Positions 4,900-64,000 of a DNA stretch of 64,000 bases are shown in pieces (the first letter of the stretch is position 1; each line of letters starts with the position of its first letter). A program made the translations under genes and the position numbers. The stretch is from Siphonodentalium dalli (Eukaryota > Mollusca > Scaphopoda > Gadilida > Siphonodentaliidae), in the NCBI GenBank assembly GCA_032622095.1, contig CP136064.1:5883512-5947511 (forward strand), given 5' to 3'. The notes under the pieces are model-generated. The model was not told the DNA's origin. It searched no databases and saw only the letters and a list, made by a program, of their open reading frames with translations.

Positions 4900-4976
4900 C
4901 TCGTCTTCCACTCTCGGGACACTGTTTTTGTCACCTAAATGACACCGGCATGGGAAAGCCTGTATAATACTCAAAT
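4900..4976 (-). CDS. MPND: MPND exon 9: MPN domain segment AFPCRCHLGDKNS
   Basis: Seventy-seven bases between a TTTATCTTTCAG acceptor and a GTACGTGAG donor. It completes the split codon from exon 8 (C+AT = His) and then encodes LSIIQAFPCRCHLGDKNS followed by VPRVEDE. This lines up with the human MPND stretch around AFPCRSRLGDAE, and the exon ends in phase 0, as exon 10 requires. The acceptor and the first 40 or so bases of this exon are the seed of the large array that follows at higher coordinates (upstream in the transcript). Confidence 0.93.
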
Positions 4977-6285
4977 CTGAAAGATAAAAACTTAGAATGA
5001 CGACCAACATAAAGTGACTCAGTCACTTAACCAACACAGCCTGTATAATACTTAAATCTGAAAGATAAAAACTTAGAATGACGACCAACATAAAGTGACT
5101 CAGTAACCTAACTGACACCGGCCTGTATAATACTTAAATCTGAAAGATAAAAACTTAGAATGACGACCAACATAAAGTGACTCAGTAACCTAACTGACAC
5201 CGGCCTGTATAATACTTAAATCTGAAATACAAAAACTTAGAATGACGACCAACATAAAGTGACTCAGTCACCTAACTGACACCGGCCTGTATAATACTTA
5301 AATCTGAAATACAAAAACTTAGAATGACGACCAACATAAAGTGACTCAGTCACTTAACCAACACAGCCTGTATAATACTTAAATCTGAAAGATAAAAACT
5401 TAGAATGACGACCAACATAAAGTGACTCAGTCACTTAACTGACACCGGCCTGTATAATACTAAAATCTGAAAGAAAAAAACTTAGAATGACGACCAACAT
5501 AAAGTGACTCAGTAACCTAACTGACACCGGCCTGTATAATACTTAAATCTGAAATACAAAAACTTAGAATGACGACCAACATAAAGTGACTTAGTCACTT
5601 AACCAACACAGCCTGTATAATACTTAAATCTGAAATACAAAAACTTAGAATGACGACCAACATAAAGTGACTCAGTCACTTAACCAACACAGCCTGTATA
5701 ATACTAAAATCTGAAATACAAAAACTTAGACTGACGACCAACATAAAGTGACTCAGTCACTTAACTGACACCGGCCTGTATAATACTAAAATCTGAAAGA
5801 AAAAAACTTAGAATGACGACCAACATAAAGTGACTCAGTAACCTAACTGACACCGGCCTGTATAATACTTAAATCTGAAATACAAAAACTTAGAATGACG
5901 ACCAACATAAAGTGACTCAGTCACTTAACCAACACAGCCTGTATAATACTAAAATCTGAAATACAAAAACTTAGACTGACGACCAACATAAAGTGACTCA
6001 GTCACTTAACTGACACCGGCCTGTATAATACTAAAATCTGAAAGAAAAAAACTTAGAATGACGACCAACATAAAGTGACTCAGTAACCTAACTGACACCG
6101 GCCTGTATAATACTTAAATCTGAAATACAAAAACTTAGAATGACGACCAACATAAAGTGACTCAGTCACCTAACTGACACCGGCCTGTATAATACTCAAC
6201 TCTGAAAGAAAAAAACTTGGACTGGTGACCAACATATGAAGTGACTCAACACTAAACACTAAAAGACACTGGCCTGTATAATAAT
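4958..6285 (-). repeat. Array of about 16 decoy 3' splice sites copied from MPND exon 9
   Basis: Units of about 81 bp, each beginning CCTGTATAATACTTAAATCTG and running through ACTTAGAATGACGACCAAC and AAAGTGACTCAG. On the transcribed minus strand every unit keeps a pyrimidine tract, a CAG acceptor and ATTTAAGTATTATACAG, the opening of exon 9. A short stretch present in the real exon (around CTTTCCCATG) is missing in the copies, and the frame then meets TAG or TAA. Three pyrimidine-tract variants alternate (from GATAAAAA, ATACAAAA and AGAAAAAA on the plus strand), suggesting higher-order amplification. The last units near 6180-6285 are the most diverged. Confidence 0.93.
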
Positions 6286-6409
6286 AAAATTTGAACGACC
6301 AAAACTTAAAATCAACATATGAAGTGACTCAGTGGATGGATCAGGGACCAGCCTAGAGGTTTCAATGTGGGAGAAGTCACTTCTCCCTGTTGCGTTATTG
6401 GGTAGAAGC

Positions 6410-7309
6410 TAGTGTTGAAACGATTAGTGAATTTCAGAGTCGACTAGTCGAGACCCAAAAGTCGCGTTGCGTCGACTAGTCGGTACCCGATATCAAAACT
6501 TTCAAACATAACATGGTACGGAAAATTCATCGTACATGGCGTACACTGATGACTGATGGAATGACGGTCTATTGCGTAGCGCATTTCCCTGCATAGACAC
6601 CAATTTATTTGGGAAATAATACTGTAAACATCTTGATATTTATCCAACACACTGAATGTAATTATATAATTAGACATGTGGTGGATAATGATTAGAAACT
6701 CGATCATTTATACAGGTTTTAAATTTAATATCAGCGTTCGAGATTTCGTTTAGTCACGTGATCACCAATAAACCGGTGCCGAGCGGTGTCACTATAAAAT
6801 GTTAATGTTCCGACTAAATACGCCTTATAGAATGGGCTATGTTGTAGAATACGATAGCCAGGTTCTTAATGTCAGTATCATTTATATACGGTAGCAACAA
6901 TGATGTCACCTTAAGCGACCTTCAATTGATCAATTGAAATATACACTGTCTAGATCAAAGCGGTCTCCGACAAACGATAAAGCCGCGTCAATCATTGCCA
7001 TCATGTCGCAGTGATGTCTTTGACTTCAAACGACGAGTGAGACATTGTGTTGTCAATTTCATTCTTTCAATTAATAGTCGGGTCACCGTGTGTGTCTATA
7101 CTAGTAACACTGTCAATTCCGGGTGCCACCAAACATTATACTTACCGTAACTTACGCGCAGTTAACACCGTTTATGTCGGAATCGATCTTGAAAACGTTA
7201 TACATGGAACTAATACACTATGTTCCGACTAGTCGACGGCAAAATTCAGAGTCGACGTTCTGACATTTCAGCGTCATCTACGACTAGTCGATTAATCGTT
7301 TCAACCCTA
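6410..7309. mobile_element. Non-autonomous hAT element with 8-bp target duplication
   Basis: The left end is TAGTGTTGAAACGATTA and the right end, reversed, is TAGGGTTGAAACGATTAATC, each followed by a CGACTAGTCG-type motif. A perfect 8-bp duplication GTAGAAGC flanks the element (6402-6409 and 7310-7317). The first five bases fit the hAT terminal rule YARNG. The 900-bp interior has no transposase-like frame. It sits in MPND intron 8, just left of the exon 9 array. A second copy of the same terminus is found at 33638. Confidence 0.9.
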
Positions 7310-7510
7310 GTAGAAGCGGACTGTCATCAGGGAGAAATAACAATGGTTAAAGTTCAATTTACACCCCAATATCACCCTTCTATGATACAATAAATATTAT
7401 CCAACAGAAGAGACCATTTATAAAACCATAGTGAGTAAGAACACCACTAAATATTCTTTAATTAATTATGCTGCTGGGACATATGCATACTGGTGATACA
7501 ATTCAGGGAG

Positions 7511-7606
7511 AAGATGTCTTCCAAGTCGCCGTCTAGGCTGGTCTCTGTCTCCCAAGTCGCCCTCCAGACTGGGCCCTGTCTCCCAAGTCATCCTCCAGAC
7601 TGGTCA
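7511..7606. repeat. Short tandem repeat, about 2.7 units of 37 bp
   Basis: Copies of a TCTCCCAAGTCGCC / CCAGACTGG unit with a few substitutions, in MPND intron 8. No splice-site or coding meaning is visible. Confidence 0.7.
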
Positions 7607-7862
7607 AACAAACCCTGAAGGCCTCCTTCATTGTTCCACAGCAATACATTTAGTATGATTACATCAACACTAGGATACCTTACCATATCATGAAAATGAT
7701 AACACATATATATGCGCGTACAAGATTTCATATGCATTTAAAGAAGGTTCGATTTGATGTAATTAGTATGCAAATAAATAAATCGTTACTATCATCACTT
7801 TGATGGCATCATCTAACGAAGTAAGAATAATTCATAGTCATTGGTGGGAAATAATACTTTAA

Positions 7863-8254
7863 CCCTTTACCCAACAGAAGGGCCCTGTGCCAATGCATTC
7901 TCTTATATATGCGAGTCGACCATAGGTCACCTCGCATATATAAGAGAATGCATTGGCTTAACACATTAAAAATTATAAAATTGTTAAAGAATGTAAGAAA
8001 AAATGGTAAAAAGTGTTAAAAAAAGATTTTTTTTAGGCCAATGCATTCTCTTATATATGCGAGGCGACCTATGGTCGACTCGCATATATAAGAGAATGCA
8101 TTGGCACAGGGCATAACTGTAACTATCACAATGTGGTCAAGGAGCCAGTTCCAATGATATCCATATTTGTATGGTTCTATTGAGACAGACCGAAGATATT
8201 TTAGGCTGTTGAAGCTTTATTTGGCCGGTTTTGGCCGTTTTGTTGGGTAAAGGG
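7863..8254. mobile_element. TTAA-flanked MITE, family A (piggyBac-like), copy 1
   Basis: Terminal inverted repeats CCCTTTACCCAACA are flanked on both sides by TTAA (7859-7862, 8255-8258), the target duplication of piggyBac elements. Inside are two hairpins built from CCAATGCATTCTCTTATATA, joined by an AT-rich spacer. The segment GATATTTTAGGCTGTTGAAG lies near the right end. The class is inferred from the TTAA sites and CCY termini, since no transposase is present. Confidence 0.82.
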
Positions 8255-8718
8255 TTAAATGACTTATGGTCGTTTGTTGAACTTATTATAGGGACATATC
8301 CTAAGAGAACAATGAGTATTTACTATAGAAAGGGTTTATCAGCAATAAATTGAGGAGTAAATATTCATAATTGTGCACAGTTTGTATTTTTATGAAATGG
8401 CACGATCAGTGTGGTTGGAATTTTTCTGAAATATTAGTTGCATGCTAAATTTTTTTAGAGGACAAAGTGCTGGGGGACTCAGTTATCATAAGTTAAAATA
8501 AGTTCCACAATATGTCTGAAATGTCACAATATGTAGAAATGGTGTTCAACTGTCCCAAATGTAAGTCAATTTAAGCAGGAAACACCAAGAAACTGAAAAG
8601 TACATACCCCTCCCGATTCCAAATCATGCTAATAAAAAGAGCCTGTGACTAACAGAAGGTGCTCGACAGCTTGTGATAATGACCCCATCAGTCTGACTCT
8701 ATCTCGATTATTACTTAC

Positions 8719-8791
8719 GTTGTGTGTTTGGGTCCCATTTCCCTCCTAAATATCCAACAACTTCACTCATTGTTAAATGGCAATGGTAGTC
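8719..8791 (-). CDS. MPND: MPND exon 8: MPN+ catalytic glutamate exon
   Basis: Seventy-three bases between a TTGCATTGTAG acceptor and a GTAAGTAATA donor. It encodes DYHCHLTMSEVVGYLGGKWD followed by PNTQ, very close to the human DFHSHLTRSEVVGYLGG segment. The E of MSEVVGYLGG is the conserved MPN+ glutamate that acts as general base in JAMM proteases. The exon starts in phase 0 and ends with one spare base, in agreement with exons 7 and 9. Confidence 0.94.
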
Positions 8792-10189
8792 CTACAATGC
8801 AAAACATGTTCATCTATAGTAATAATACAGATTAATTCTCAGGCATTTTTTTTTTAAATCAATGGGGGAGCGAGGGTTTTATTTTTATTTTTTATTTCTT
8901 TCTGCCCATAGTAAAAATGGGTAATTATACCTTCCGAGGTCCAGAAAATGTAGGGAGAACTTTGTAATGGATATAAACTAATTTGATCTGATGTAAAGAA
9001 TGACAAATTATGACATTGTAGTACCCGTACATCATATAGGGATTACCTAGAATGATATATATATTGATATGATTTTAATATCGGCACAATCATTTCTATC
9101 AAAATGCAGAACTACATATCCGATTCATATCAAAATACGGAACGTAAATACAGTCGAAACGAAAAGATAAATTGATCTTCCAAACTTTCATATAAAGTCT
9201 TGATTCACTTATTCTGCTGACTAATTAACCCTTTACCCAACAGAACGGCCCTGTGCCAATGCATTCTCTTATATATGCGAGTCGACCATAGGTCGCCTCG
9301 CATATATAAGAGAATGCATTGGCTTAACACATTAAAAATTATAAAATTGTTAAAGAATGTAAGAAAAAATGGTAAAAAGTGTTAAAAAAAGATTTTTTTT
9401 AGGCCAATGCATTCTCTTATATATGCGAGGCGACATATGGTCGACTCGCATATATAAGAACATGCATTGGCACAGGGCATAACTGTAACTATCACAATGT
9501 GGTCAAGGAGCCGGTTCCAATGATATCCATATTTGTATGGTTCTATTGAGACAGACCGAAGATATTTTAGGCTGTTGAAGCTTTATTTGGCCGGTTTGTT
9601 GGGTAAAGGGTTAAGAGACTGTATATGTACCGCAATGGATGATAGACGATAAAACTTCAAATAACCATCATAAACATGAACATCACTTGTCAAACTGCTC
9701 CGGTTTTCATACCTCGATCACAACAGCGGGGGAAACACTATCTTGCAGGGTTACTTACTTACTGTGCAAAGGTCGCCATGGTCAGGTTGGTGGATGACTT
9801 ATTCAATATCCAACATCCTGCTTTTATCGAAATATATCAACACATTTGACAAATAAACTTGGGGGTTTGGACAGCCTGTGGTGACAATATATCTGATAAT
9901 AATCGTTGCCTATGGTCTTTTGTTGAATAACCACAAATACACCGTTGAATTTAGCTCCTATTCGATATTTGAACTAATTGTGACAGTTTCCTATTTTCGT
10001 GTTACCAGTTTACAACTACAGTGAAATCCAAATATTTAAATAAAATGGTCCAAAGCGGGCCATTTTTATTGATGCAGCAATGCCTGAGAATCAAAACCTT
10101 TTTTTTGCATTAATGTGTTAATGTAGCACAAATCTGCCCAGATCAGACATTTCAATCTTACTAGTACTAGTATCAGAAGCATTGCGTTT
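8792..10189. other. MPND intron 7, MITE-rich part
   Basis: A diverged relative of the element at 59997-60623 can be traced by its subterminal motifs: the GAGGGTTTTATTTTTATTTTT motif near 8871 and TGCCTGAGAATCAAAACC near 10081. A TTAA-flanked family A MITE (9229-9610) lies within it. No further exon was found. Confidence 0.55.
9229..9610. mobile_element. TTAA-flanked MITE, family A, copy 2
   Basis: Same structure as the copy at 7863, with TTAA at 9225-9228 and 9611-9614 and CCCTTTACCCAACA termini. The two copies are nearly identical, which implies recent spread. Confidence 0.82.
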
Positions 10190-13100
10190 GTCACGACAGT
10201 GATGGTGAATGGTTCTATATATAACTTACCATGAGAAGCATCGCCTTTGTTGCGACAGTGATGGCGAATGGTTCTATATATAACTTACCATGAGAAGCAT
10301 CGCCTTTGTTGTGATGGTGAACGTTCTATATATAACTTACCATGAGAAGCATCGCCTTTGTTGTGACAGTGATGGTGAACGTTCTATATATAACTTACCA
10401 TGAGAAGCATCGCCTTTGTTGCGACAGGGATGGTGAATGGTTCTATATATAACTTACCATGAGAAGCATGGCGTTTGTCACGACAGTGATGGTGAATGGT
10501 TCTATATATAACTTACCATGAGAAGCATCGCCTTTGTTGCGACAGTGATGGTGAATGGTTCTATATATAACTTACCATGAGAAGCATCGCCTTTGTTGTG
10601 ATGGTGAACATTCTATATATAACTTACCATGAGAAGCATCGCCTTTGTTGCGACAGTGATGGTGAATGGTTCTATATATAACTTACCATGAGAAGCATCG
10701 CCTTTGTTGCGACAGTGATGGTGAAGGGTTCTATATATAACTTACCATGAGAAGCATCGCCTTTGTTGCGACAGTGATGGTGAAGGGTTCTATATATAAC
10801 TTACCATGAGAAGCATTGCATTTGTTGCAACAGTGATGGTGAAGGGTTCTATATATAACTTACCATGAGAAGCATCGCCTTTGTTGCGACAGTGATGGTG
10901 AATGGTTCTATATATAACTTACCATGAGAAGCATCGCCTTTGTTGTGATGGTGAACGTTCTATATATAACGTACCATGAGAAGCATCGCCTTTGTTGCGA
11001 CAGTGATGGTGAATGGTTCTATATATAACTTACCATGAGAAGCATCGCCTTTGTTGTGATGGTGAACGTTCTATATATAACTTACCATGAGAAGCATCGC
11101 CTTTGTTGCGACAGTGATGGTGAATGGTTCTATATATAACTTACCATGAGAAGCATCGCCAACTTACCATGAGAAGCATCGCCTTTGTTGCGACAGTGAT
11201 GGTGAAGGGTTCTATATATAACTTACCATGAGAAGCATCGCCTTTGTTGCGACAGTGATGGTGAATGGTTCTATATATAACTTACCATGAGAAGCATCGC
11301 CTTTGTTGCGACAGTGATGGTGAATGGTTCTATATATAACTTACCATGAGAAGCATCGCCTTTGTTGCGACAGTGATGGTGAATGGTTCTATATATAACT
11401 TACTATGAGAAGCATGGCGTTTGTCACGACAGTGATGGTGAATGGTTCTATATATAACTTACCATGAGAAGCATCGCCTTTGTTGTGATGGTGAACGTTC
11501 TATATATAACTTACCATGAGAAGCATCGCCTTTGTTGCGACAGTGATGGTGAATGGTTCTATATATAACTTACCATGAGAAGCATCGTCTTTGTTGCGAC
11601 AGTGATGGTGAATGGTTCTATATATAACTTACCATGAGAAGCATCGCCTTTGTTGTGATAGTGAACGTTCTATATATAACTTACCATGAGAAGCATCGCC
11701 TTTGTTGCGACAGTGATGGTGAATGGTTCTATATATAACTTACCATGAGAAGCATCGCCTTTGTTGTGATGGTGAACGTTCTATATATAACTTACCATGA
11801 GAAGCATCGCCTTTGTTGCGACAGTGATGGTGAAGGGTTCTATATATAACTTACCATGAGAAGCATCGCCTTTGTTGCGACAGTGATGGTGAATTGTTCT
11901 ATATATAACTTACCATGAGAAGCATCGCCTTTGTTGCGACAGTGATGGTGAATGGTTCTATATATAACTTACCATGAGAAGCATCGCCTTTGTTGTGATG
12001 GTGAACGTTCTATATATAACTTACCATGAGAAGCATCGCCTTTGTTGCGACAGTGATGGTGAAGGGTTCTATATATAACTTACCATGAGAAGCATCGCCT
12101 TTGTTGCGACAGTGATGGTGAATGGTTCTATATATAACTTACCATGAGAAGCATCGCCTTTGTTGCGACAGTGATGGTGAATGGTTCTATATATAACTTA
12201 CTATGAGAAGCATGGCGTTTGTCACGACAGTGATGGTGAAGGGTTCTATATATAACTTACCATGAGAAGCATCGCCTTTGTTGCGACAGTGATGGTGAAT
12301 GGTTCTATATATAACTTACCATGAGAAGCATCGCCTTTGTTGCGACAGTGATGGTGAACGTTCTATATATAACTTACCATGAGAAGCATCGCCTTTGTTG
12401 CGACAGTGATGGTGAAGGGTTCTATATATAACTTACCATGAGAAGCATCGCCTTTGTTGCGACAGTGATGGTGAATGGTTCTATATATAACTTACCATGA
12501 GAAGAATGGCGTTTGTCACGACAGTGATGGTGAATGGTTCTATATATAACTTACCATGAGAAGCATCGCCTTTGTTGCGACAGTGATGGTGAAGGGTTCT
12601 ATATATAACTTACCATGAGAAGCATGGCGTTTGTCACGACAGTGATGGTGAATGGTTCTATATATAACTTACCATGAGAAGCATCGCCTTTGTTGTGATG
12701 GTGAACGTTCTATATATAACTTACCATGAGAAGCATCGCCTTTGTTGCGACAGTGATGGTGAATGGTTCTATATATAACTTACCATGAGAAGCATCGCCT
12801 TTGTTGTGATGGTGACGTTCTATATATAACTTACCATGAGAAGCATCGCCTTTGTTGCGACAGTGATGGTGAAGGGTTCTATATATAACTTACCATGAGA
12901 AGCATCGCCTTTGTTGCGACAGTAATGGTGAATGGTTCTTTATATAACTTACCATGAGAAGCATCGCCTTTGTTGTGATGGTGAACGTCCTATATATAAC
13001 TTACCATGAGAAGCATCGCCTTTGTTGCGACAGTGATGGTGAAGGGTTCTATATATAACTTACCATGAGAAGCATGGCGTTTGTCACGACAGTGATGGTG

Positions 13101-14368
13101 AATGGTTCTTTATATAACTTACCATGAGAAGCATCGCCTTTGTTGCGACAGTGATGGTGAATGGTTCTATATATAACTTACCATGAGAAGCATCGCCTTT
13201 GTTGTGATGGTGAACGTTCTATATATAACTTACCATGAGAAGCATCGCCTTTGTTGCGACAGTGATGGTGAATGGTTCTATATATAACTTACCATGAGAA
13301 GCATCGCCTTTGTTGTGATGGTGAACGTTCTATATATAACTTACCATGAGAAGCATCGCCTTTGTTGCGACAGTGATGGTGAAGGGTTCTATATATAACT
13401 TACCATGAGAAGCATCGCCTTTGTTGCGACAGTGATGGTGAAGGGTTCTATATATAACTTACCATGAGAAGCATTGCATTTGTTGCGACAGTGATGGTGA
13501 AGGGTTCTATATATAACTTACCATGAGAAGCATCGCCTTTGCTGCGACAGTGATGGTGAATGGTTCTATATATAACTTACCATGAGAAGCATCGCCTTTG
13601 TTGTGATGGTGAACGTTCTATATATAACTTACCATGAGAAGCATCGCCTTTGTTGCGACAGTGATGGTGAATGGTTCTATATATAACTTACCATGAGAAG
13701 CATCGCCTTTGTTGTGATGGTGAACGTTCTATATATAACTTACCATGAGAAGCATCGCCTTTGTTGCGACAGTGATGGTGAAGGGTTCTATATATAACTT
13801 ACCATGAGAAGCATCGCCTTTGTTGCGACCGTGATGGTGAAGGGTTCTATATATAACTTACCATGAGAAGCATTGCATTTGTTGCGACAGTGATGGTGAA
13901 GGGTTCTATATATAACTTACCATGAGAAGCATCGCCTTTGTTGCGACAGTGATGGTGAATGGTTCTATATATAACTTACCATGAGAAGCATCGCCTTTGT
14001 TGTGATGGTGAACGTTCTATATATAACTTACCATGAGAAGCATCACCTTTGTTGCGACAGTGATGGTGAATGGTTCTATATATAACTTACCATGAGAAGC
14101 ATCGCATTTGTTGTGATGGTGAACGTTCTATATATAACTTACCATGAGAAGCATCGCCTTTGTTGCGACAGTGATGGTGAAGGGTTCTATATATAACTTA
14201 CCATGAGAAGCATCGCCTTTGTTGCGACAGTGATGGTGAAGGGTTCTATATATAACTTACCATGAGAAGCATTGCATTTGTCACGACAGTGATGGTGAAG
14301 GGTTGCAAACTTACCATGAGAAGCATCGCATTTGTCACGACAGTGATGGTGAAGGGTTGCAAACTTAC
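10175..14368 (-). repeat. Array of about 70 decoy 5' splice sites copied from MPND exon 7
   Basis: A 4.2-kb minisatellite of mainly 59-bp and 52-bp units (plus strand: ACCATGAGAAGCATCGCC, TTTGTTGCGACAGTGATGG, then TTCTATATATAACTT). On the transcribed minus strand each unit is the last 40 or so bases of MPND exon 7 (ATCACTGTCGC...CTTCTCATG) followed directly by its donor GTAAGTT. The two units next to the genuine exon (14261-14368) are 54 bp, carry GTAAGTTTGCAACC, and keep the reading frame. Later units have GTAAGTTATATATAG, which brings an in-frame TAG. A partly deleted unit occurs near 11160. I estimated the copy number from length, not by exact count. Confidence 0.95.
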
Positions 14369-14465
14369 CATGAGAAGCATCGCATTTGTCGCGACAGTGA
14401 TGGTGAAGGGTTGTACTATTCCGCTGTTGGTGAAGGTTTCGCACTTGACTAGAGTATTTGGATCG
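14369..14465 (-). CDS. MPND: MPND exon 7: start of the MPN domain
   Basis: Ninety-seven bases entered after TTTGTTTCCAG and left at GTAAGTTTGC. It completes an Asn codon begun in exon 6 and encodes DPNTLVKCETFTNSGIVQPF followed by TITVATNAMLLM. This aligns with the human segment NPHTLVEVTSF...QPFNVAVSSNVLFLL at the first strands of the MPN fold. It ends in phase 0, and exon 8 then continues with DYHCHLT. The 3' end and donor of this exon are the template of the large array at lower coordinates. Confidence 0.94.
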
Positions 14466-14556
14466 CTGGAAACAAAGCAAGAAATATGTTGATTCTCATT
14501 AATTTATATTTTTAAGACCTGAGCACCCTCATACAAAATATCAGATCAATTTGCAT

Positions 14557-14953
14557 CCAAGCCTTGAAATAGGGTGTCTGTCATTGGCAGAATGAGGTCC
14601 CCAGAGGGTGAATTTGGTGATGCTATCCCGCTATGCGGGGTAGCATAACTAAATTCATCCTCTGGGGACCTCATTCTGCAAATGACAGACACCCTATTTC
14701 AAGGCTTGACCGAGCCTGAGAATATAGTGTCAAACATCTGCAGAATGAGGTCCCCAGAGGGTTAATTTAGTGATGCTACCCCACACAGCACTATCATAAC
14801 CAAGCCTTGAAATAGTGTGCCTGTCATTTGCAGAATGAGGTCCCCAGAGGGTTAATTTAGTGATGCTACCCCACACAGCGCTATCATAACCAAGCCTTGA
14901 AATAGTGTGCCTGTCATTTGCAGAATGAGGTCCCCAGAGGGTGAATTTAGTGA
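14557..14953. mobile_element. Family B MITE followed by three truncated tandem half-copies
   Basis: A complete palindromic copy (about 14559-14709, bounded by CAAGCCTTGAAATAGGG arms) is followed by three direct half-copies, each ending near a CAGAATGAGGTCCCCAGAGG arm. The repeated CACACAGC...ATCATAACCAAGCC joints suggest local tandem duplication rather than separate insertions. Confidence 0.75.
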
Positions 14954-15109
14954 ATAAATATAGTCTCTTTTTAGTGGTTGTGGTTAGTTAACTCATTCAA
15001 ACTGGAAAGCTGATAGCAACAATTAAATGGGACTAAAGGCATTCAAAGTGGGTTCATGCAAAATAACATAAAAGTCTGAAAATAAACCAAACAACTATCA
15101 TCAGTAAGT

Positions 15110-15406
15110 ATAGTAATGCCCTAAATAATCGACTCCTTAACCACAGCAGAATTATGGGTATTTTTTCAGGATTTAGTCGGAAATATGGCTTGTTGCCATC
15201 ATCGAAAAGCTCTCACTGAGAGCTTTCCAATAAGCTAGCATTACCAAATTCACCCTCTGGGAACCTCATTCTGCTGAGGTGTAAGCAGAATGAGGTCCCC
15301 AGAGGGTGAATTTGGTGATGCTAGCCTGCTATGCGGGGTAGCATCACTAAATCCACCCTCTGGGGACCTCATTCTGCAAATGACAGACACACTATTTCAA
15401 GGCTTG
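15110..15406. mobile_element. Hybrid MITE: family C left arm joined to family B
   Basis: The left part (AGTAATGCCCTAAATAATCG ... GGAAATATGGCTTGTTGCC ... AGAGCTTTCC) is one arm of the TA-flanked palindromic family C. It switches near 15228 into a family B double hairpin that ends ATTTCAAGGCTTG. The joint suggests insertion of one family into the other followed by loss, or template switching. Confidence 0.6.
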
Positions 15407-15629
15407 ATCATCAGCAAATATATGTAAAAATATATCAATTTTGATCTTATTTTCATTATTAATAACTACAATAAAGAGATTTTGAATATTGAAACCATTG
15501 TTATGTAAATATTTCTGTAACAGTAGCCTTACCAATCAAAGTCCAATCATAGATATAAAAGTTTAATAAAAACTTGACGGTAAATATTGGAATGGTCAAA
15601 GCATAAGTAACCATATTCTGAAAATGCCC

Positions 15630-15676
15630 GAGCATCGAGAAATTTACTGCTTTCCATTCAAATGAAACCTATGGGT
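15630..15676 (-). other. Diverged duplicate of the MPND exon 6 3' end
   Basis: On the minus strand GGAAAGCAGTAAATTTCTCG followed by ATGCTCGGGCA is a clear relative of GGAAAGCAGTCAAGTTCTCG followed by ACACTCGGGCG at the end of MPND exon 6. The frame encodes KAVNFSMLG against KAVKFSTLG. No good flanking splice sites retain it as an exon, so it is probably a decayed duplicate lying downstream of exon 6. It could be an unused alternative exon. Confidence 0.55.
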
Positions 15677-15712
15677 AAAATGTTATAAACACACAATAAC
15701 CATGAGAGTTAA

Positions 15713-18825: not shown

Positions 18826-18833
18826 CCCCAGAG

Positions 18834-55059: not shown

Positions 55060-55095
55060 ATGTCAGATAGTGAGGCCAGTGATCTGAAGTGGCAG
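55060..55095 (+). CDS. TOP2: Probable TOP2 exon 1
   Basis: ATG at 55060 gives MSDSEASDLKWQ, then a donor CAG|GTTAGTATG. It is 36 bp, phase 0, and joins exon 2 (QMLGG...) in frame. The N-terminal tail of TOP2 is not conserved between phyla, so homology cannot confirm it. The call rests on the start, donor, phase and position. An alternative is that translation starts at the ATG at 57979 in exon 2. Confidence 0.5.
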
Positions 55096-57975
55096 GTTAG
55101 TATGTAATAATCAAGGCCACAATAAAAATATTGTTGGTTTCTACTTGCCCTACCCAAATTTTCAAAGTTTTGACAGCGGGTAGGTTGGTAGGGAAATTCT
55201 TCTCTTTTTTTTTGCGAGTTTAGTGTAGCACAGTAGCACTGTATACATGTATGCAAGGTATTTCTGTGAACACTGTTCTGATACATAACTTTAATAACGT
55301 TAATAACCATAGAAATAGCAGTAAGAGCAACAGTGCAGAGTACTTTTGAACAATAACATTAAACATTAATTAATACTCGGGCAATTAATTGATTTTACTA
55401 TAATACTAGTTGAATCTAGACTTCCTGCATAAATTTTTTTAGGAACAAATGGTGATTTTTTTTATATTCAAAATATACTGAAATCTGATCTCGTGGTTCA
55501 GTTCAACACAACCGAACATCATTGTCCAATAATTTCTAGTTAACATGTATGCATATTCTCTCAGAACATTCTTCTAATAAAATTACACTTCTTGTCACAA
55601 TTACAACAGCACCTGTCTTAACAACTTATCAAAGTGACCATTGCTTTAATTTCGTTGTCAGCAGATGAATAAGTATGACTAGTCTAATATTTAAAATAAA
55701 AAATTTAAACCTCAATGTAATAATATTGAGTCGCCGTCTTTTAAAGCAGTCGGTCGGGGCGAACAGAAACCAACAATTTATTAAGTGTGGCCCAAGTATG
55801 GTGGATAGATATGACTGAAAGGTTCAAGTTCTCATGATTCTGTTGCTTTAATACATGTACATGTAGCCACAGTAGGTTAACCATGATGTCTGAAACGTTG
55901 ATGAATATATAGGATCTCCAAATCTCACCCAAATAATGGGTTAGGCCAAAAAAAAAAATAGGTGTGTTTGGGGTCAACTACCACTAAAAAATTAGGGTAG
56001 GTAAGGTAGGTTTTTTTTTTTCTTTTAAGAAACTTTTAGTGTTTGGAAATTTCCGGGGTTTTCCCTCTATTAAGGTGCAGTAAAAGGGTTTATGAGCATA
56101 AAGTGGACACCAAAAGTACTTATTATCTCTATAGTTAATTTGTAAACATACCTTTCTATCTGAAACATTCCTTTTTGGGCAGATTTGGTTGCAAATCAAG
56201 CAATGTTTACCGCGATACAGAGGTCACGATACGATACGTATCGTGATTTTACTTACCTAAAATTATAGTGATATTGCCGAGTATTTGTACGGACTGTATA
56301 TACACTGATATATAGCGATAACGACGGGTGGGTATGTGCTTGCGTGGCTATATGTAAGCCAACATGAACTCGCTAAAATATGTGTACTAGACGTTCGTCT
56401 AAAATGTTTGTTGTTGCAACTTGTATTGTATTGTCTATTAAGAAGAAAAAAACTAATTAAAACCTCGTCCATGCATCGACTATCAGTGATATCCCATCGG
56501 CCTGGAAGCATAAAGATGCCGACATTGTTGCACTGCGTTGTCTGAACAAAATTAATTGGAGAGTACAAACACTACCCGTTGACCAATGAGGAACGTCGTC
56601 TCCGAAAATCTCTCAGTCAATGTCACGAGATTGACAGTTAAATGGGAGGGGCTTTATATTAATAACTCATGTCAAGTTGTCAACTTTATAATGGGAATTG
56701 GGGGAGAGGATTCATTGTCTGTTGACAAGTTTATTGCAGGAAGTTTAACAATTGCTCAGCAACCCACACGGGCCAGTACTGGCACAGTGCAGTGTTGACG
56801 TGACATGGGGAAAGACATACATGTAGATTGATCTGATATAGGTTGAGATCACTCTGGTTACTAGTAACAGTGAAAGAAAAATTGCAGCAATAGCAGTAAG
56901 ACAGACATCAAAGTTTGGCCGCCGGTTGTAAACGACATGTCATTGACAAAGTAGGTCACTTGCTGAATGACGTGTACTGTTGAAATAGGTCATTAAAATT
57001 GAGGTCAGGTCAGGTCTGTGCTTTGATCAGTGGACCACTAGCGACTGATTGATCTATTAATACAATGTGTTTCAAGAAGATGGCATTGTATTGTCCACAC
57101 ATGAGTCGGAGTTAAAGGGTTTGTGGAGACAACACAAATTTTTTTTTTTCTCATAATCAATAAAAACATTAGGGTCAGCGACTTTTTATAGGGTCGGTCA
57201 GGAGACCCCAAACACACCTATTTTTTTGTTTTGGCCTGGCACATGGTCTAGTTTCATAGCTACCAGTGATACAATAACTTACATAGTGGTATATACATAT
57301 ATACATGTACCTGTGAAGGTATGCAATGTTAACCAATTTAATTTATGATGTCAATCAGTTGTGTAAATTCTCTGTTAAATGAGCAGGTGCTAATTCTATT
57401 ATAATTGTGCAATTTGGAGAATCATTGACTGGATTTTCATCATATCTTCATCCTATTATCGTATATCGCTGAATGGGTCACTATCATCTCGCGACATGCG
57501 GTCGAGTACCCAGCTTAATATTTTGCATTGTCGAGTACCTCACTTAACAAATCTCACAGCTAAACGAGATTCCCAATATCGTCTGCAAAATTACTTTTAT
57601 TTTTGAAGGATTCCAATGTCCAAAACAAAATGAAAATGCAAGCTGGTGTGACATAAAGTCTAAAGACTCACAGTATCCTTACAATTAAATCGTTTGATGG
57701 TAGGCCTATATAAAATTCCTTTGTATCATGTGATCCCACTCCGATATTTCGTAGAGCGAGGTACTCGGCCACACTGATTTTATTAAGTGATGTACTAGTA
57801 ATCGACCGCACGAAATATTAAGCTGGGTACTCAACCGCACGTTGCGTGATGATAGTTAGTGACCCCTTCAGCATTACTATCCACATGATTACATGGTTCT
57901 TTATAAAGGCATAGGAAATTCCCTTTTCGTTTCAACACTAGTTAGTAGTTAGCATCCAAATTGTTTGTATTCCAG
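55096..57975. other. TOP2 intron 1
   Basis: Contains a TIR element of about 1.3 kb (55945-57236) and, on the right, paired motifs CTGGGTACTCAACCGCACGT and, reversed, GCGGTCGAGTACCCAGCTTA (about 57825 and 57499). These suggest a further inverted-repeat element at about 57470-57880. No exon was recognised. Confidence 0.55.
55945..57236. mobile_element. TIR element in TOP2 intron 1
   Basis: Left end GGCCAAAAAAAAAAATAGGT plus GTGTTTGGGGTC mirrors right end GACCCCAAACACACCTATTT plus TTTTGTTTTGGCC. The termini resemble the TTA-flanked elements at 59290 and 59997. A clear TTA duplication is lacking (left GTTA, right TGGC). No transposase frame is seen. Confidence 0.65.
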
Positions 57976-58233
57976 CAGATGCTAGGTGGTACTGCCAGTC
58001 AGGACAGTGCTCCAGCTGAAAAGAAAGCTAAGGCAACGAAAGCTAAGAAGGCAAAGGCAGAAGCACCAATGTTTGAAGATGGCAGCGGGGATTTTGACTC
58101 GGACGCCGCGTTTGATAAACAAGGAGGTAATAAGAAAATGAGTGTTGAGCGGATCTACCAGAAGAAGACGCAGCTAGAACACATCTTACTGAGACCTGAC
58201 ACATACATTGGTTCAGTTGAATCAGTTACGCAG
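57976..58233 (+). CDS. TOP2: TOP2 exon 2: basic N-tail and start of the ATPase domain
   Basis: DNA topoisomerase II is the ATP-driven type IIA enzyme that passes one DNA duplex through another in the nucleus. The exon follows TTTGTATTCCAG. Its 86 codons run QMLGGTASQDSAPAEKKAKA, then a Lys/Ala-rich and an acidic stretch, then the invariant block KKMSVERIYQKKTQLEHILL followed by RPDTYIGSVESVTQ. This is the start of the GHKL ATPase domain, almost identical to human TOP2A and TOP2B. It leaves at CAG|GTTAGTAAC in phase 0. An in-frame ATG at 57979 is a possible start if exon 1 is not used. Confidence 0.96.
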
Positions 58234-59286
58234 GTTAGTAACTCAGTCAGCATTACTCGCTTATTGAAAACAATCACAACTTTTGGTGAATTTCAGTTAT
58301 TTTTAACACTTCCGTGACAGGAGCTTCCTCAAATATTGCGAAAACCCTGTACATTACATGTATTTACCTTGACCTTGTACTTAACCAGTCCATTCTCTTA
58401 TTTAATATGCAAGGCTCCCTATGGGAGACTCGCGTATATAATATAATGAACTGGCACATGGTCTTTAATGCTGCACCAGCGCAACTCCCATTGGAAACCT
58501 CGATTTAATATGCAATGTGTTGCCTGCCTATTTGGGGATATAGAGAAACTTAACTAAAAAAGAAATAGAATCTATGTGAAGAAGTTTCTATATAGAAATT
58601 TGATAATAAAGGAACTTTCCAGAGAAGATGAGGCATAAGCAGAATGAGGTTCCCAGATTAGTGATACAAGCCCACTGGGGACCTCATTCTGCAAATGACA
58701 GACACACTAAACTCAGACTTGACTACCAAGCATGGAAATAACTCAAAATTTGGTTGCGGACTAAATCACATGCAGTCCATTTTTTTCCGACCATTTTTTG
58801 ACACCACCCCCCCCCCTTTAACACTAAAACAGAGATTTGCGGGGGGAAATTCACTGTAAACAACTGTATATGAATTAATTTCTGTGCATACTATTTATCA
58901 TGGATGTTAACATGGACATGTAAATAGGAATGAGTCATTTTGAGGTCATTCGGCAAAAAAACATAGCTGCCAGCGGCCATCTTGGATTTCAAAATTTGCA
59001 ACAAAATACAACATGATAACTGCCTGCAGTCAGTTTACCAGTTAGAATTACATTATTTCTCTCATTCAAAGTGGTTTTGAAGCCCAACTCATTGCCAAAA
59101 CACTAAAAAAAACAAGCAGGAATTTTTTTTTTTAGTTGCGGAAAAAATTGCTTGTTGGTGGCTTTGACCACCCACCCACCCTGGCATACTAGTATGTGCC
59201 GGAAATTTTTGTTTCACCCCCCCCCCTGTGCAGTCAGGTACCAATGAATTTTTACCTGTGCATGGTAGATAAATCAGTACCAGTCA
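58234..59286. other. TOP2 intron 2, left part
   Basis: Holds a diverged family D/A hairpin (58356-58460), a reduced family B MITE (58636-58725) and C-tracts at 58807 and 59217. No exon was recognised. Confidence 0.5.
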
Positions 59287-59289
59287 TTA

Positions 59290-59665
59290 GGCCAAAGAAA
59301 AATGAACATCTGGTTTGGGTTACAAGCCGGAAAAAAATAGGGTCGGTAGGTAGGCTTGAAATTTTATTTTTTTAATTAATTTTTTCATTTTGACATATTC
59401 TTATGACTTTTCAAGTGCGTATTTTACTCTGTAAGATTGACATAAAACTACTTTTGATTATTTTTGTATAAATTTTAATATTACACAATACTTTTACTTA
59501 GAAATCAACCTATTCTGAGATGCTTGAATGTGTTTTTTATGTTTTATGAAATTTTTGGAGAAAAAATTAAATAGATTTTCTTGAAAACCATGAAAAACAA
59601 TTTAGGGTAGGGGGTATAAAATAGGGTCAGGGAAACCCAAACCGCAAATAAGTTTTTCTTTGGCC
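59290..59665. mobile_element. TTA-flanked MITE, PIF/Harbinger-like
   Basis: Ends GGCCAAAGAAAAATGAACAT and, reversed, GGCCAAAGAAAAACTTATTT with subterminal GGTTTGGGTT motifs, flanked by TTA at 59287-59289 and 59666-59668. TTA/TAA duplications are typical of PIF/Harbinger elements. It has no transposase. Confidence 0.78.
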
Positions 59666-59801
59666 TTATGACAGCACACACAAACATGCATCGGTCTTAT
59701 ATGTGACCCACCATATAACCCACAGGGAGCCTCACACAGATGGAAGCATGCACTACATAGTGTCGTCTGCTCCAGGCTGTGTGGGGCTCTCTATGGGTTA
59801 A

Positions 59802-60890
59802 TAGACCCGCCATATCAAATCCAGTCGTAAGTCGGGATATTTTTACCCTGTGCCAATGCATTCTCTTATATATGCGAGTCGACCATAGGTCGCCTCGCAT
59901 ATATAAGAGAATGCATTGGCCTAACAATTTTTTATCATTTTTTTAAAATAAATGTTTCTTACAATTTTTAGGACATAAAATAAAAAACATCTATTAGGCC
60001 AAAAAAAAAAGGGTTTTGGTTCTCGGGCAATTTGTTTTTCAAATCAATGAGGGAGGGAGGGTTTTATTTTTATTTTTTATTTTTTTCTGCGCATAGTAAG
60101 CATGGACAAAGATACCTTCCTCTGTTTAGTAATAACCAGAAAGGTAGAGGGAACTGTTATGGATATAAACTCATTTAGTCTTATATAAAAATGACATTGT
60201 ACTACCAGTGTATGACTGGGATTACCTAACAATATATAATGCCCCTGACATTAACTACTGTTATTGTTGTCTAAAAACTGATACCTCCCCATTCTAATAT
60301 GTGATCCTGAATTTAGTCCTGTGCCTTTCAATTGTATAAAGTTACAATTAGTGTAAGTTGTTCACAATGACTAATTGTAAGAAGAGCATGAGGATCAGCT
60401 TATCATTTTCTTAATTGTAGTCATCTACTTCATGTTGTAAGCCTGCAAGTCACTTTTTAACACATTACATGTTAGAGCTCAATGCACACTAATATTCAAC
60501 ACATATCTGCTATGGACATGTTGATAAAATCCAACAAAAAAAAAGCAATAAAAAGGCCTAATGCGGCCCTTTATATTCAATGCGGCGGTGCCTGAGAACC
60601 AAAACCTTTTTTTTGTTTTGGCCTTACCCTGCAGGGAGCCCCACACATATATAGAAGCATATAGAAGAGTGTCGTCTGCTCATGTTTGTCTGGGGCTCTG
60701 TATGGGTGAAATTATAAAATTGTTAAAGAATACAAGAAAACATTATTAAAATTGTAAAAAATTGTTAGGCCAATGCATTCTCTTATATATGCGAGGCAAC
60801 CTATGGTCGACTCGCATATATAAGAGAATGCATTGGCACAGGGTAAAAAAAATCCCGACTTACGACTGGATTTGATATGGCGGGTCACAT
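59802..60890. mobile_element. Family E MITE interrupted by a TTA-flanked element
   Basis: The ends are GACCCGCCATATCAAATCCA and, reversed, TGTGACCCGCCATATCAAAT, with the CCAATGCATTCTCTTATATA hairpins and GGGAGCCCCACA unit inside. A 627-bp element splits it at 59997-60623. Without that insertion it is about 460 bp and matches 27590-27990. Confidence 0.8.
59997..60623. mobile_element. TTA-flanked element nested in a family E MITE, with a known empty site
   Basis: Begins GGCCAAAAAAAAAAGGGTTT plus TGGTTCTCGGGCA and ends TGCCTGAGAACCAAAACC plus TTTTTTTTGTTTTGGCC, with TTA on each side (59994-59996, 60624-60626). The uninterrupted version of the same target, AAACATCCATTACCCTGCAG, survives in the MITE at 27720-27745. 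This shows directly what was inserted and that TTA was duplicated. Confidence 0.9.
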
Positions 60891-61266
60891 TTAGGCATTT
60901 TCGGCCAGCCATTGTCTGTGACTGGACACTTATTTCCAGCCTTGTATACTGCACATAAATTCACCGATCACTGATGGGTTTCTACATGATTCACATTCAT
61001 TTATTTGTAGGGCTGTTTGGGTAAAAGTTCAACAATCAGCTTTATACAAAACACTCTAAATTATTTAGCAGCTACTTCTGGTTACTGACGTCTGTTTTTG
61101 CCTGATTTTAATAAAACATCATTTCATTACTGAGGTCTTTGTCAGTGTTGAGCATATGATATCTGATGTCCCTAGTATTTGAGAATTTGAGATCTGTGTA
61201 TCCAGGTAGTAGTATTACATGTTATGTTTGTGAGTGAAATTAAGATCTATTGATTTCTCTTTTCAG

Positions 61267-61360
61267 AGTATGTGGGTTTTTGATGAGGATACAAATTCCA
61301 TGGTTCAAAGAGAAATCTCATTTGTTCCTGGACTGTACAAGATATTTGATGAAATTCTTG
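61267..61360 (+). CDS. TOP2: TOP2 exon 3: ATPase domain with the catalytic glutamate
   Basis: Ninety-four bases between TCTCTTTTCAG and GTAAGGCC. It encodes SMWVFDEDTNSMVQREISFV followed by PGLYKIFDEIL and a spare G. Human TOP2A reads QMWVYDEDVGINYREVTFVPGLYKIFDEILVNA. The E of FDEIL starts the GHKL motif ExxxN, whose glutamate activates water for ATP hydrolysis. The spare G joins TG of exon 4 to give Val. Confidence 0.97.
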
Positions 61361-63480
61361 GTAAGGCCAAAGCATAAATATCTGTATTTAGGCCAACAAA
61401 ATTAATGTTTTGTTTCACGAGCATTTTTTTCTTCGAATCAGTGTGGGCGTGCAAGCGGGTTTTATTTAAAAAAAAATTAATTTACCGATAGCATAGTATA
61501 CCGGCATTGTAGCATGTTGGAAACAGTGTATTGTCCGTAAACATTTTATTTTAGCCTATTTCTAAGGAAACTTCCTTTGTTAATCCTTTACCCAACAGAA
61601 CGGCCCTGTGCCAATGCATTCTCTTATATATGCGAGTCGACCATAGGTCGCCTCGCATGTATAAGAGAATGCATTGGCTTAACACATATTAAAAATGATA
61701 AAATTGTCAAAGAATGTACAAAAATATTATAAAAATTGTTTAAAAATGTAAGAAAAAATTATAAAATTGCTAAAGAATGTAAGAAAAAATGGTAAAAAGT
61801 GTGGGCCAATGCATTCTCTTATATATGCGAGGCGACCTATAACTAACTATCACATTGTGGTCAATGAACCGGTTCCAATGATATCCATATTTGTATGGTG
61901 TTATTGAGACAGACCGAAGATATTTTAGGCTGTTGAAGCTTTATTTGGGCGTTTTTGGCCGTTTTGTTGGGTAAAGGGTTAATGCATCCAAAATTAAGAG
62001 ATTTATCCCACAGGGAGCCTCACACAGATGGAAGCATGCACTGCAGAGTGTCGATTGCTCCAGTCTATGTGGGGCTCTATAAAGGGTTAATCCATCCAAA
62101 AATTAAATATGCATCTACATGGAGCCCAGACATTGTCTCAATGTTCTATTTTTAGTTGATTTTTTTTTGGCGAGGTATTTATGTGGTCGGGCTTCTGTAA
62201 GGGCGCTAGACCGTTAGTGTGATAACTCAAACAAACGTCAACCGATTTAATTGATATGGGTGATAATGGGTCTGTTGCAGCAATATCTAGCTCATATTCG
62301 AAAACCAGGTTTGTCCAATCTTTTATTCAAGAGTTATGTCACTTATGTGCCTTACATGTAGTTTGTATAGTTTTAGCGATTTTGATCATTCGCGACTGTT
62401 GGCGCGAAAGCTCAAACAAACTTCGATCGATTTCAATGATATTCGGTATATGAGTCTAGGATCATCCCCAGATGGGAGCTGTCAAATTTTAACGATTTTC
62501 GATGAATAACATGGCCACGGGCAGCTATCTTTCATTTTAATCTTTGCATCACTAAATCCTTTGGCACACCCTACATAGCATATTCCTCATCCAATCATCC
62601 CAGAACTTCATATGGAACCTTCATATGCATTACAAGGATACCTGATAATGAGCAGTGAAAGATCTTGTCAGTATGCTAGCCATATGGTATCCTCGCATAC
62701 TCCCGGCTGTACCTCCCCCTGTCCCCGGGGAGCAGTAGATGGTTACTGAATGTTCAGGCTCATCAGGGTAATAATTGTAAAACTTTGAGCGCTTTGGGCC
62801 TCATGGGAAAGGCGCTTTACAAATGCTATACATTATTTATTATGGCTGATTACTATTTTTTCCAAATTCTGTTAAAAAACATGGCTGCCAGTGGCCATCT
62901 TGGATTTTACTCTTTGGTTGACTAAATCCTTTAGCACACCTTACAGATCACATTTCTCATCCAATCGTCACCAAACTTCATATGGATGTTCAGGGTGACC
63001 TCTAGATGGAAGCCTCCATTTTTCCACGAAATTCGTTTTAAAAAAAACATGGCCGGGGCAACCATCTTGAATTTCAAATGTAAATCCATCAGCACACCCT
63101 GCAACCCACATTTTTTTGAGAATTATTTTGAAACTTTACAGGTCGCACTGTGTCCTGTATCACAATCTCTCCCAATACCTATACAGTCCTCGAAATTAGG
63201 AAAATGTCCCACAGCAATGTTAATGCTGAGGCATTATAGATTCAACATGTTGCCACGGCATTTCGCACGGTATTGCTTATTGCCATGGCCAATTTTGAGG
63301 ACTGCCTATATACAGTAATATGCTCATAGAAGCCTCATTGAGCCTCACTGTGTCCTGTTATATCATTTGTGCTGCCAGGGGCTCATATGCCAAATGAATA
63401 TCTGCCCTATGTTACCGGAAACATCACTTATATTTTGTTAAGGACTCACTAGTACATGTATGTATTTTCTTTGATTTTAG
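61361..63480. other. TOP2 intron 3
   Basis: Contains a family A MITE (61584-61978, flanked by TTAA at 61580-61583 and 61979-61982) and a family D unit at about 62007-62088. Two diverged copies of a dispersed repeat share CTTCATATGGA, CATCTTGGATTT and ACTAAATCCTTTGGCACACC-like motifs (about 62525-62640 and 62880-63000). No exon was recognised. Confidence 0.6.
61584..61978. mobile_element. TTAA-flanked MITE, family A, copy 7
   Basis: Left end TTAATCCTTTACCCAACA and right end TTGGGTAAAGGGTTAA. The spacer between hairpins is expanded by repeated TGTAAGAAAAAAT segments, and the second hairpin is cut short. It lies in TOP2 intron 3. Confidence 0.78.
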
Positions 63481-63544
63481 TGAATGCCTCAGATAATAAA
63501 CAGAGGGATCCAAACATGAATTGTATTAAGATTGACATCGATCC
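63481..63544 (+). CDS. TOP2: TOP2 exon 4: VNASDNKQRD segment
   Basis: Entered after TTCTTTGATTTTAG and left at GTAAGTAAAT, 64 bp. With G from exon 3 it encodes VNASDNKQRDPNMNCIKIDI followed by D and CC of a Pro codon. This matches human VNAADNKQRDPKMSCIRVTIDP. The N of VNASDN is the asparagine of GHKL motif ExxxN that binds magnesium with ATP. Downstream exons are outside the window. Its 3' end and donor seed the array that follows. Confidence 0.97.
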
Positions 63545-64000
63545 GTAAGTAAATAATACATTTAGACATCAATCCGTAAGTAAATAATACATTCAGTTAA
63601 AACTTACATGGAAGAAATATATCGCATTTTACTTAGTTTTTTTGGTTTCCATCTGATAAATCCAGTCATAGTTATTTGATCAAACACCAAACTTAATAAT
63701 ACATTCAGGTATTAAGATTGACATCGATCCGTAAGTAATTAAATACATTCAGGTATTAAGATTGACATCGATCCGTAAGTAAAGAATACATTCAGGTATT
63801 AAGATTGACATCGATCCGTAAGTAAAGAATACATTCAGGTATTAAGATTGACATCGATCCGTAAGTAAATAATACATTGAGGTATTAAGATTGACATCGA
63901 TCCGTAAGTAAATAATACATTCATGTATTAAGATTGACATCGATCCGTAAGTAAATAATACATTCAGGTATTAAGATTGACATCGATCCGTAAGTAAATA
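63545..64000 (+). repeat. Array of decoy 5' splice sites copied from TOP2 exon 4
   Basis: After a partial copy (GACATCAATCCGTAAGTAAA at 63563), seven consecutive units of about 42 bp run from about 63704 past the window edge. Each reads ACATTCAGGTATTAAGATTG plus ACATCGATCC|GTAAGTAA. The last 19 or so bases of exon 4 and its strong donor are therefore repeated. Each unit also carries ATACATTCAG|G before the exon piece, so every unit looks like a 21-base mini-exon with its own acceptor and donor. All seven donors are intact. Confidence 0.95.

What the first reader, a model, noticed from the sequence alone, without database searches (positions are those of the whole stretch)
4958..64000. Minisatellites are made of amplified exon-intron junctions in three unrelated genes
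At least six of the tandem repeats here are built from a piece of a conserved exon plus its own splice site. They sit on the intron side, next to the genuine site: MPND exon 1 donor, exon 2 acceptor, exon 7 donor, exon 9 acceptor, UBE2G2 exon 4 donor, and TOP2 exon 4 donor. Units (31 to 81 bp) and sequences differ, so this is a repeated process and not one spreading repeat. Possible causes are slippage or break repair at junctions, an RNA or R-loop intermediate, or selection keeping strong splice signals. I know of no named class for this, and its novelty is my inference.
Basis: partly seen in the sequence, partly recalled or inferred. Interest (0 to 1): 0.92.

Follow-up and report, generated by a model that had tools for sequence, protein, structure and literature searches.

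The report
Minisatellites built from splice junctions ("mirages")
In this animal genome short tandem repeats often grow out of the edge of an exon together with its own splice signal; the same oddity was described and named "mirages" in lancelets, and here it recurs at several per cent of the splice junctions sampled.

Summary
All six junction arrays exist at MPND, UBE2G2 and TOP2, copies 31-81 bp apart. Two further duplicated exon edges, each split by dispersed repeats, make 8 of 33 probed junctions. Elsewhere in the genome, 217 exons in 193 loci (kinesin, dynein, TCP1) carry 18 arrays that span a called splice junction (13 donor, 5 acceptor). Counting each array once and allowing for dispersed repeats, 15 locus-specific junction arrays stand against 2.4 expected (bootstrap ratio 2.8-16.4). 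Against this: the fixed-criteria TCP1 replication alone gave 1 versus 0.55; acceptors alone are weak; a per-position probe test shows no excess; a genome-wide tripled donor motif does not exceed controls. Best reading: mirage-type minisatellites, tolerated because the exon-proximal splice site stays intact, probably over-represented at junctions, mainly donors. The cause of the excess is open.

The parts
31967..32061 (-). MPND exon 1 donor array: 2 copies, 47 bp; 28 exonic bp (32034-32061) lie in the array
32206..32262 (-). MPND exon 1 5' edge (acceptor or start codon), original copy of a 57-bp duplication
32527..32583 (-). Second copy of the MPND exon 1 5' edge (96.5% identical); the stretch tested between the copies (32280-32520) is dispersed-repeat sequence
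28257..28472 (-). MPND exon 2 acceptor array: 43 bp x 5.0; 6 exonic bp (GGTCGG) per unit
10175..14412 (-). MPND exon 7 donor array: 59 bp period, 54 bp to the nearest copy, about 73 copies; 44 exonic bp (14369-14412) lie in the array
4958..6312 (-). MPND exon 9 acceptor array: 82 bp period (81 bp to the nearest copy), 16.5 copies
41425..41548 (-). UBE2G2 exon 4 donor array: 33 bp period (31 bp to the nearest copy) x 3.8; a further copy at 41057-41086
41652..41727 (-). UBE2G2 exon 4 acceptor edge, original copy of a 77-bp duplication
42087..42162 (-). Second copy of the UBE2G2 exon 4 acceptor edge (92% identical); the stretch tested between the copies (41740-42010) is almost wholly dispersed-repeat sequence
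63534..64000 (+). TOP2 exon 4 donor array: first copies 31 bp apart (63534-63593), then 43 bp x 7.1 from 63695, cut by the window end
2819..32245 (-). MPND gene, exons M10 to M1 (2819-2987, 4900-4976, 8719-8791, 14369-14465, 16138-16384, 16828-16865, 21442-21788, 22674-22760, 28116-28262, 32034-32245)
40487..52785 (-). UBE2G2 gene, exons 40487-40599, 41533-41673, 46314-46430, 49706-49787, 52743-52785
55060..63544 (+). TOP2 gene 5' part, exons 55060-55095, 57979-58233, 61267-61360, 63481-63544

Best explanation
These are mirage-type minisatellites. Step 1 (inferred): a short local duplication arises that straddles an exon-intron junction. Step 2 (consistent with the sequences): it is tolerated because the exon-proximal copy keeps a complete donor (8 or more intronic bp in the sampled donor units) or acceptor, so the normal site can still be used and all extra copies become intron. 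Step 3 (structure shown, process inferred): copies multiply by slippage or unequal exchange, giving homogenised arrays of 2 to about 73 copies that drift, are split by dispersed repeats and decay. About 4% of the sampled borders in this genome carry one, and junctions, mainly donors, appear to found arrays several times more often than equal lengths of neighbouring intron. The excess is most likely mutational. My preferred but weakly held cause is that exons are short islands of conserved sequence next to very variable introns, so repair or recombination that starts in the exon runs out of homology at the junction and re-copies the exon edge.
For: Window arrays. Independent sample: 18 TRF arrays (period >=28, score >=100) span a called junction at 217 exons; copies printed and read by eye for 9 donor and 5 acceptor cases, e.g. 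L050 with 34-bp units of 22 exonic + 12 intronic bp. One count per array, corrected for dispersed repeats: 15 locus-specific versus 2.39 expected, bootstrap ratio 2.8-16.4. Uncorrected in the first 175 exons: 15 versus 5.1 (P 0.0003), and 12 versus 1.5 for arrays of 2.4 or more copies. Of 5246 junction-derived or locus-specific array bases 6-356 bp from called junctions, 3574 are junction-derived. 15 of 18 junction units match no other sampled locus or window piece. Three recent kinesin paralogues carry the same donor array with 11.5, 14.5 and 14.5 copies at 93-97% aligned identity, which shows length change and argues against an assembly error. Same geometry in amphioxus, where regular splicing is reported undisturbed (passages), and in human CBS (passages).
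Against: Strict replication on TCP1 with criteria noted beforehand gave 1 junction array against 0.55 expected, P 0.42; one of its 4 controls continues that same junction array, the other three have 154-165 bp units shared with 6-13 other loci. Acceptors alone are not significant in the first sample (5 versus 2.8, P 0.15; 3 versus 0.8, P 0.04 for 2.4 or more copies). With all TRF rows (period >=12) the excess is small: 13 array edges in the 50 bp inside exons and 3 in the next 50 bp, against 4-12 per 50-bp intron bin. Per-position probes: donors 8 of 217 and acceptors 7 of 217 have a local copy (31/36 match) against 6-14 of 205-214 at twelve intron offsets, so junctions are not duplicated more often per base. 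Genome-wide tripled AGGTAAGT: 2060 matches versus 2042 for its reverse, 1401 for a dinucleotide-matched permutation and 2187 for the reverse of that; in the listed part about 10 separate arrays in 250 Mb versus about 9 in 287 Mb. That scan has low power: 7 of 129 well-scored donors have AGGTAAGT, and no sampled donor array with 2.4 or more copies does. Splice sites in the sample are called by a weight matrix, not RNA (129 of 217 donors score 2 or more); L156 and L088 are weak cases. Two-copy arrays may stay visible up to twice as long at junctions, because one copy is conserved. Thresholds in the first sample were explored, not fixed beforehand; the dispersed-repeat correction is one average figure. 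No evidence bears directly on the homology-boundary cause.
Confidence: 0.7

Rival explanations
1. Pure neutral sampling: tandem duplications strike everywhere at equal rate, those inside exons are purged, those at junctions and in introns survive. Junction arrays are then just the expected tail.
For: Per-position probe rates are no higher at junctions than in introns; the motif scan shows no excess; array edges of all kinds are nearly evenly spread; the fixed-criteria TCP1 set alone is not significant.
Against: Counts with one vote per array exceed this null 3- to 16-fold, and 0 of 20,000 window placements reach 6. The per-position test counts every copy of long intron arrays, including those that grew from junctions.
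Confidence: 0.27
2. Exonic DNA is simply more prone to duplication (composition or chromatin), and only junction-straddling events survive selection.
For: Exonic share of donor units is often above half.
Against: Not separable from the preferred cause with these data; only 2 arrays lay wholly inside exons at 175 exons, but such arrays would be purged anyway.
Confidence: 0.2
3. Selection keeps junction arrays because spare splice signals or exon-edge copies help exon definition.
For: Donor sites in copies vary less than the rest of the unit in the M7 (55 copies aligned), T4 and L050 arrays (3 of 495, 0 of 63, 0 of 126 mismatches versus 69 of 2720, 5 of 229, 7 of 350).
Against: L051 donors show no clear difference (1 of 90 versus 3 of 210), and the acceptor arrays M9 and L137 vary more at the site than elsewhere (12 of 168 versus 28 of 971; 3 of 80 versus 8 of 408). 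No clear preference for multiples of three: 8 of 16 donor distances, P 0.13. In amphioxus mirages are reported not to interfere with regular splicing (passages).
Confidence: 0.08
4. A transposon or introner-like element spreads by carrying splice sites.
For: Dispersed repeats are dense here (at least 36.7% of flank bases match another sampled locus or window piece).
Against: Units are built from the host exon at each locus, and 15 of 18 match no other sampled locus; the 3 that do (1, 1 and 5 other loci) were not examined further, conserved exon sequence in paralogues being the likely reason. The search with the M7 junction reported matches only in its own array.
Confidence: 0.03
5. Assembly artefact.
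For: No reads could be examined.
Against: Copies differ from each other, some are split by dispersed repeats, and three separate paralogues carry the same array with different copy numbers.
Confidence: 0.03

Closest known systems
Amphioxus 'mirages' (Adh3, globins BflGb6 and BflGb9, TnC, PGBD5)
   Same: [quoted passage not shown] PMC3902484).
   Different: Described there gene by gene in lancelets; RT-PCR, haplotype and (for Adh3) somatic length data are cited there, none here. Here 217 exons of a 2.2 Gb genome are sampled and a rate and enrichment are estimated. I did not identify the species.
Human CBS 31-bp VNTR c.1444_1467+7 and CBS 844ins68
   Same: The variant name gives 24 exonic + 7 intronic bp, 16-21 copies; 844ins68 duplicates an intron 7/exon 8 junction and splicing strongly favours one of the two sites (passages of PMC2630376).
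   Different: Single human loci, described as polymorphisms.
Intron gain by tandem duplication of AG/GT segments
   Same: Tandem duplication including splice signals (listing of PMC4974935; discussed in passages of PMC3087553).
   Different: There the duplication creates a new intron; here existing junctions are duplicated and no new intron is shown.

Membership tests
Mirage (junction-spanning minisatellite) | Tandem units span the exon-intron boundary | tested here: met
   6 window arrays plus 2 split duplications; 18 arrays in the 217-exon sample
Mirage (junction-spanning minisatellite) | Both 5' and 3' boundaries can be affected | tested here: met
   13 donor and 5 acceptor in the sample; both kinds in the window
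Mirage (junction-spanning minisatellite) | Units of about 10-160 bp | tested here: met
   TRF periods 30-90 bp in the sample; nearest copies 31-81 bp apart in the six window arrays
Mirage (junction-spanning minisatellite) | Regular splicing is not disturbed | not testable with these tools
   No RNA; only that exon frames are open up to the exon-proximal sites and the spliced pieces match known proteins
Mirage (junction-spanning minisatellite) | Length instability between haplotypes or cells | tested here: inconclusive
   No haplotypes; three paralogues have 11.5, 14.5 and 14.5 copies
Introner / splice-site-carrying transposon | One sequence family at many loci | tested here: not met
   15 of 18 junction units match no other sampled locus; matches to the M7 junction reported only in its own array
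Intron gain by tandem duplication | A new intron position is created | not tested
   Intron positions were not compared with other species

The most novel reading that the evidence does not exclude
Splice junctions are hot spots of tandem duplication in this genome: a mutational process acts at the boundary between conserved exon and variable intron, founding minisatellites there several times more often than in intron, on about one junction in 25, so that exon edges continually feed repeat DNA into introns. Shared by lancelets and this animal, it could be a general feature of very polymorphic genomes.
Probability: 0.38. Interest if true: 0.78.

Novelty: new member of a known kind. Interest (0 to 1): 0.55.

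Why it matters
In the passages I saw, mirages are reported from single lancelet genes, and PMC3087553 calls the mechanism that generates them unclear. A genome in which about 4% of sampled borders carry one (18 of 434) makes the question countable: it offers rates, unit breakpoints and age classes, and links minisatellite birth, intron lengthening and possible intron gain. It also warns gene predictors about decoy splice sites.

Tried and rejected
Rejected: a reading-frame preference. TRF periods at donors looked rich in multiples of three, but exact site-to-site distances gave 8 of 16, P 0.13.

Rejected as too blunt: the genome-wide tripled-donor pattern. Matches are counted per position, the listed part is dominated by large satellites (for example C1:231.99-232.06 Mb), and no sampled donor array with 2.4 or more copies carries the exact motif.

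Not used for the junction test: myosin exons (many recent tandem paralogues) and kinase hits (mostly near-identical intronless copies). Rows dropped: of 272 exon matches were examined (103 of 123 kinesin, 72 of 96 dynein, 42 of 53 TCP1). Of the 55 left out, 34 were judged recent paralogues (11 kinesin, 14 dynein, 9 TCP1), 2 were intronless TCP1 genes and 19 were left for space.

My note says 20 of 100 loci had a repeat overlapping the exon; the output shows 18. Self-repeats that TRF did not report as junction arrays (for example L061, L074, L098) were not counted; L155 (1 exonic bp) was dropped by the 5-bp rule. Three arrays that abut a called junction within 4 bp (L051 acceptor, L075, L128) were left as controls. 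Other window arrays (3439-4036, 7515-7603, 17015-17107, 22800-26566, 27075-27368, 49820-49996) are not junction arrays by position.

Papers: 10 searches. PMC3087553, PMC3902484, PMC2630376 and PMC12783039 were seen as passages only; PMC4974935 and the other papers in listings only. The original mirage paper (Canestro 2002) is not held, so its content is second-hand. Earthworm metallothionein introns hold minisatellites, but the passages do not say that they span junctions.
Full report
What is there. The window is G000:C4:5883512-5947511 of a 2.23 Gb, 9-contig genome; the species was not identified (molluscan-looking repeats are only a recollection). Three genes are present: MPND on the minus strand with ten exons in view, UBE2G2 on the minus strand with five exons, and the 5' end of TOP2 on the plus strand. 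Tandem Repeats Finder lists 51 overlapping rows. Forty-base probes centred on 33 junctions found junction-crossing copies beside 8 of them; every position printed is on the intron side. Two more, at the 5' edges of MPND exon 1 and UBE2G2 exon 4, are single duplications of 57 and 77 bp whose copies are now separated by dispersed repeats. UBE2G2 exon 3, found in the same call, adds one donor and one acceptor that were not probed, making 35 junctions. Whether MPND exon 1 begins with an acceptor or a start codon is not settled.

Anatomy. By TRF limits a donor unit is the last 11-72 exonic bases plus the donor and some intronic bases; a sampled acceptor unit is the last 16-49 intronic bases plus the first 5-45 exonic bases. 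The copy next to the exon is the real site. Example L050: 15.6 copies of a 34-bp unit, each 22 exonic bases then GTAACTATGACT or a close variant. Arrays are homogenised: 55 MPND exon 7 copies aligned to a typed consensus differ from it at about 2% of positions. Some are broken by dispersed repeats.

More than chance? I therefore sampled the same genome. Exons matching Pfam kinesin, dynein AAA_6 and TCP1 models were fetched with about 500 bp (TCP1: 800 bp) of flank; splice sites were called by a weight matrix and arrays by TRF. At 217 exons (434 borders, 193 loci), 18 arrays with period >=28 and score >=100 straddle a called junction by 5 bp or more: 15 at the 175 kinesin and dynein exons, 3 at the 42 TCP1 exons. 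In the first 175 exons, with no correction, 15 stand against 5.1 expected (P 0.0003); the excess is at donors (10 versus 2.3) while acceptors alone are not significant (5 versus 2.8, P 0.15); for arrays of 2.4 or more copies it is 12 versus 1.5. Over all 217 exons, taking each array once and treating every intronic position as an equally likely founder, 11 locus-specific intronic arrays within 350 bp predict 2.39 junction arrays after allowing for the 36.7% of flank bases that match other loci; 15 locus-specific ones are seen, and a bootstrap over loci gives a ratio of 2.8 to 16.4. Three control arrays abut a junction within 4 bp (L051, L075, L128) and were left as controls.

Results that point the other way. 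I fixed criteria before the TCP1 set was fetched; on those it gave 1 junction array, 4 controls, 0.55 expected, P 0.42. One of the four controls continues the junction array of L177; the others have 154-165 bp units that recur at 6-13 other loci. With every TRF row of period 12 or more, array edges are spread almost evenly: 13 in the 50 bp just inside exons and 3 in the 50 bp before that, against 4-12 per 50-bp intron bin. A per-position test without TRF found local copies at 8 of 217 donors and 7 of 217 acceptors, against 6-14 of 205-214 at twelve intron offsets (31 of 36 bases identical). So, base for base, junctions are no more often inside repeats than introns are; the excess exists only when long arrays are counted once and small or dispersed ones are set aside. 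I think counting once is right if the question is where arrays start, but this is a choice. A genome-wide scan for three AGGTAAGT 20-45 bp apart gave 2060 matches and its reverse 2042; a dinucleotide-matched permutation gave 1401 and its reverse 2187; counting separate arrays by eye in the listed matches gives about 10 in 250 Mb against about 9 in 287 Mb. That scan is blunt, since only 7 of 129 well-scored donors carry the exact motif.

What it is. There is one. [quoted passage not shown] PMC3902484 (passage) adds TnC and PGBD5. The human CBS VNTR named c.1444_1467+7(16_21) has the same geometry (PMC2630376, passages). The structural features are met here; splicing and instability between haplotypes or cells could not be tested.

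How it works. Shown: units straddle the junction, the exon-proximal site is intact, 15 of 18 sampled units match no other sampled locus, and copy number differs between paralogues (11.5, 14.5, 14.5 copies at L051, L194, L195). Inferred: a founding local duplication, tolerance because the first intact donor or last intact acceptor is used, and growth by slippage or unequal exchange. The excess at junctions, if it stands, is not predicted by neutral survival alone. Selection on copies is not supported consistently: donor sites in M7, T4 and L050 vary less than the rest of the unit, L051 does not, and acceptor sites in M9 and L137 vary more. I favour a mutational cause tied to the conserved-exon / variable-intron boundary, which would also fit lancelets, known to me as unusually polymorphic (recalled), but nothing here tests it.

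Verdict. What I did not find in print, in ten searches of a partial library, is a rate (about 4% of sampled borders) or an estimate of enrichment.

Noticed in passing
window 16243-16362: A 24-bp repeat lies wholly inside MPND exon 6 and is translated as an 8-residue repeat (PHGKADRA-like); the frame stays open.
   Followed up: partly
window 22800-26566 and 49820-49996: A 97-bp array of 38.8 copies, 99% matches, starts 40 bp upstream of the MPND exon 3 acceptor without including it; a 31-bp array similarly starts 33 bp from the UBE2G2 exon 2 acceptor.
   Followed up: partly
window 34067-35752: Transposon-like unit: an ORF (34904-35452 +) flanked by inverted arrays of GGTACGAAACGACC; MULE-like by recollection only.
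   Followed up: no
window 51796-52619 (-): Two reading frames that look like pieces of a reverse transcriptase (FADD motif), between UBE2G2 exons; recalled motif, no search run.
   Followed up: no
window, e.g. 7870-8115, 9236-9480, 15730-15970, 38780-39015: Several copies, seen by eye, of palindromic MITE-like elements containing CCAATGCATTCTCTTATATATGCGAG; dispersed repeats of this kind lie inside the split junction duplications.
   Followed up: partly
G000:C2:149826753-150592734: Dozens of near-identical, intron-free protein kinase reading frames (mostly 281 aa) in about 0.8 Mb, all on the minus strand in the listing.
   Followed up: no
G000:C4:274219791-275507830: A cluster of similar myosin head gene copies, several with one TAG inside the same match.
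   Followed up: no
L057, 592-739 on the coding strand: The array ends on TTAACCC, shared between the exon and the start of an adjacent stretch resembling a dispersed repeat, as if short homology fixed one breakpoint (by eye).
   Followed up: no
L114 and L123; L071 and L084: Paralogous dynein acceptors and paralogous kinesin donors at apparently homologous junctions carry separate arrays with different units (by eye).
   Followed up: no
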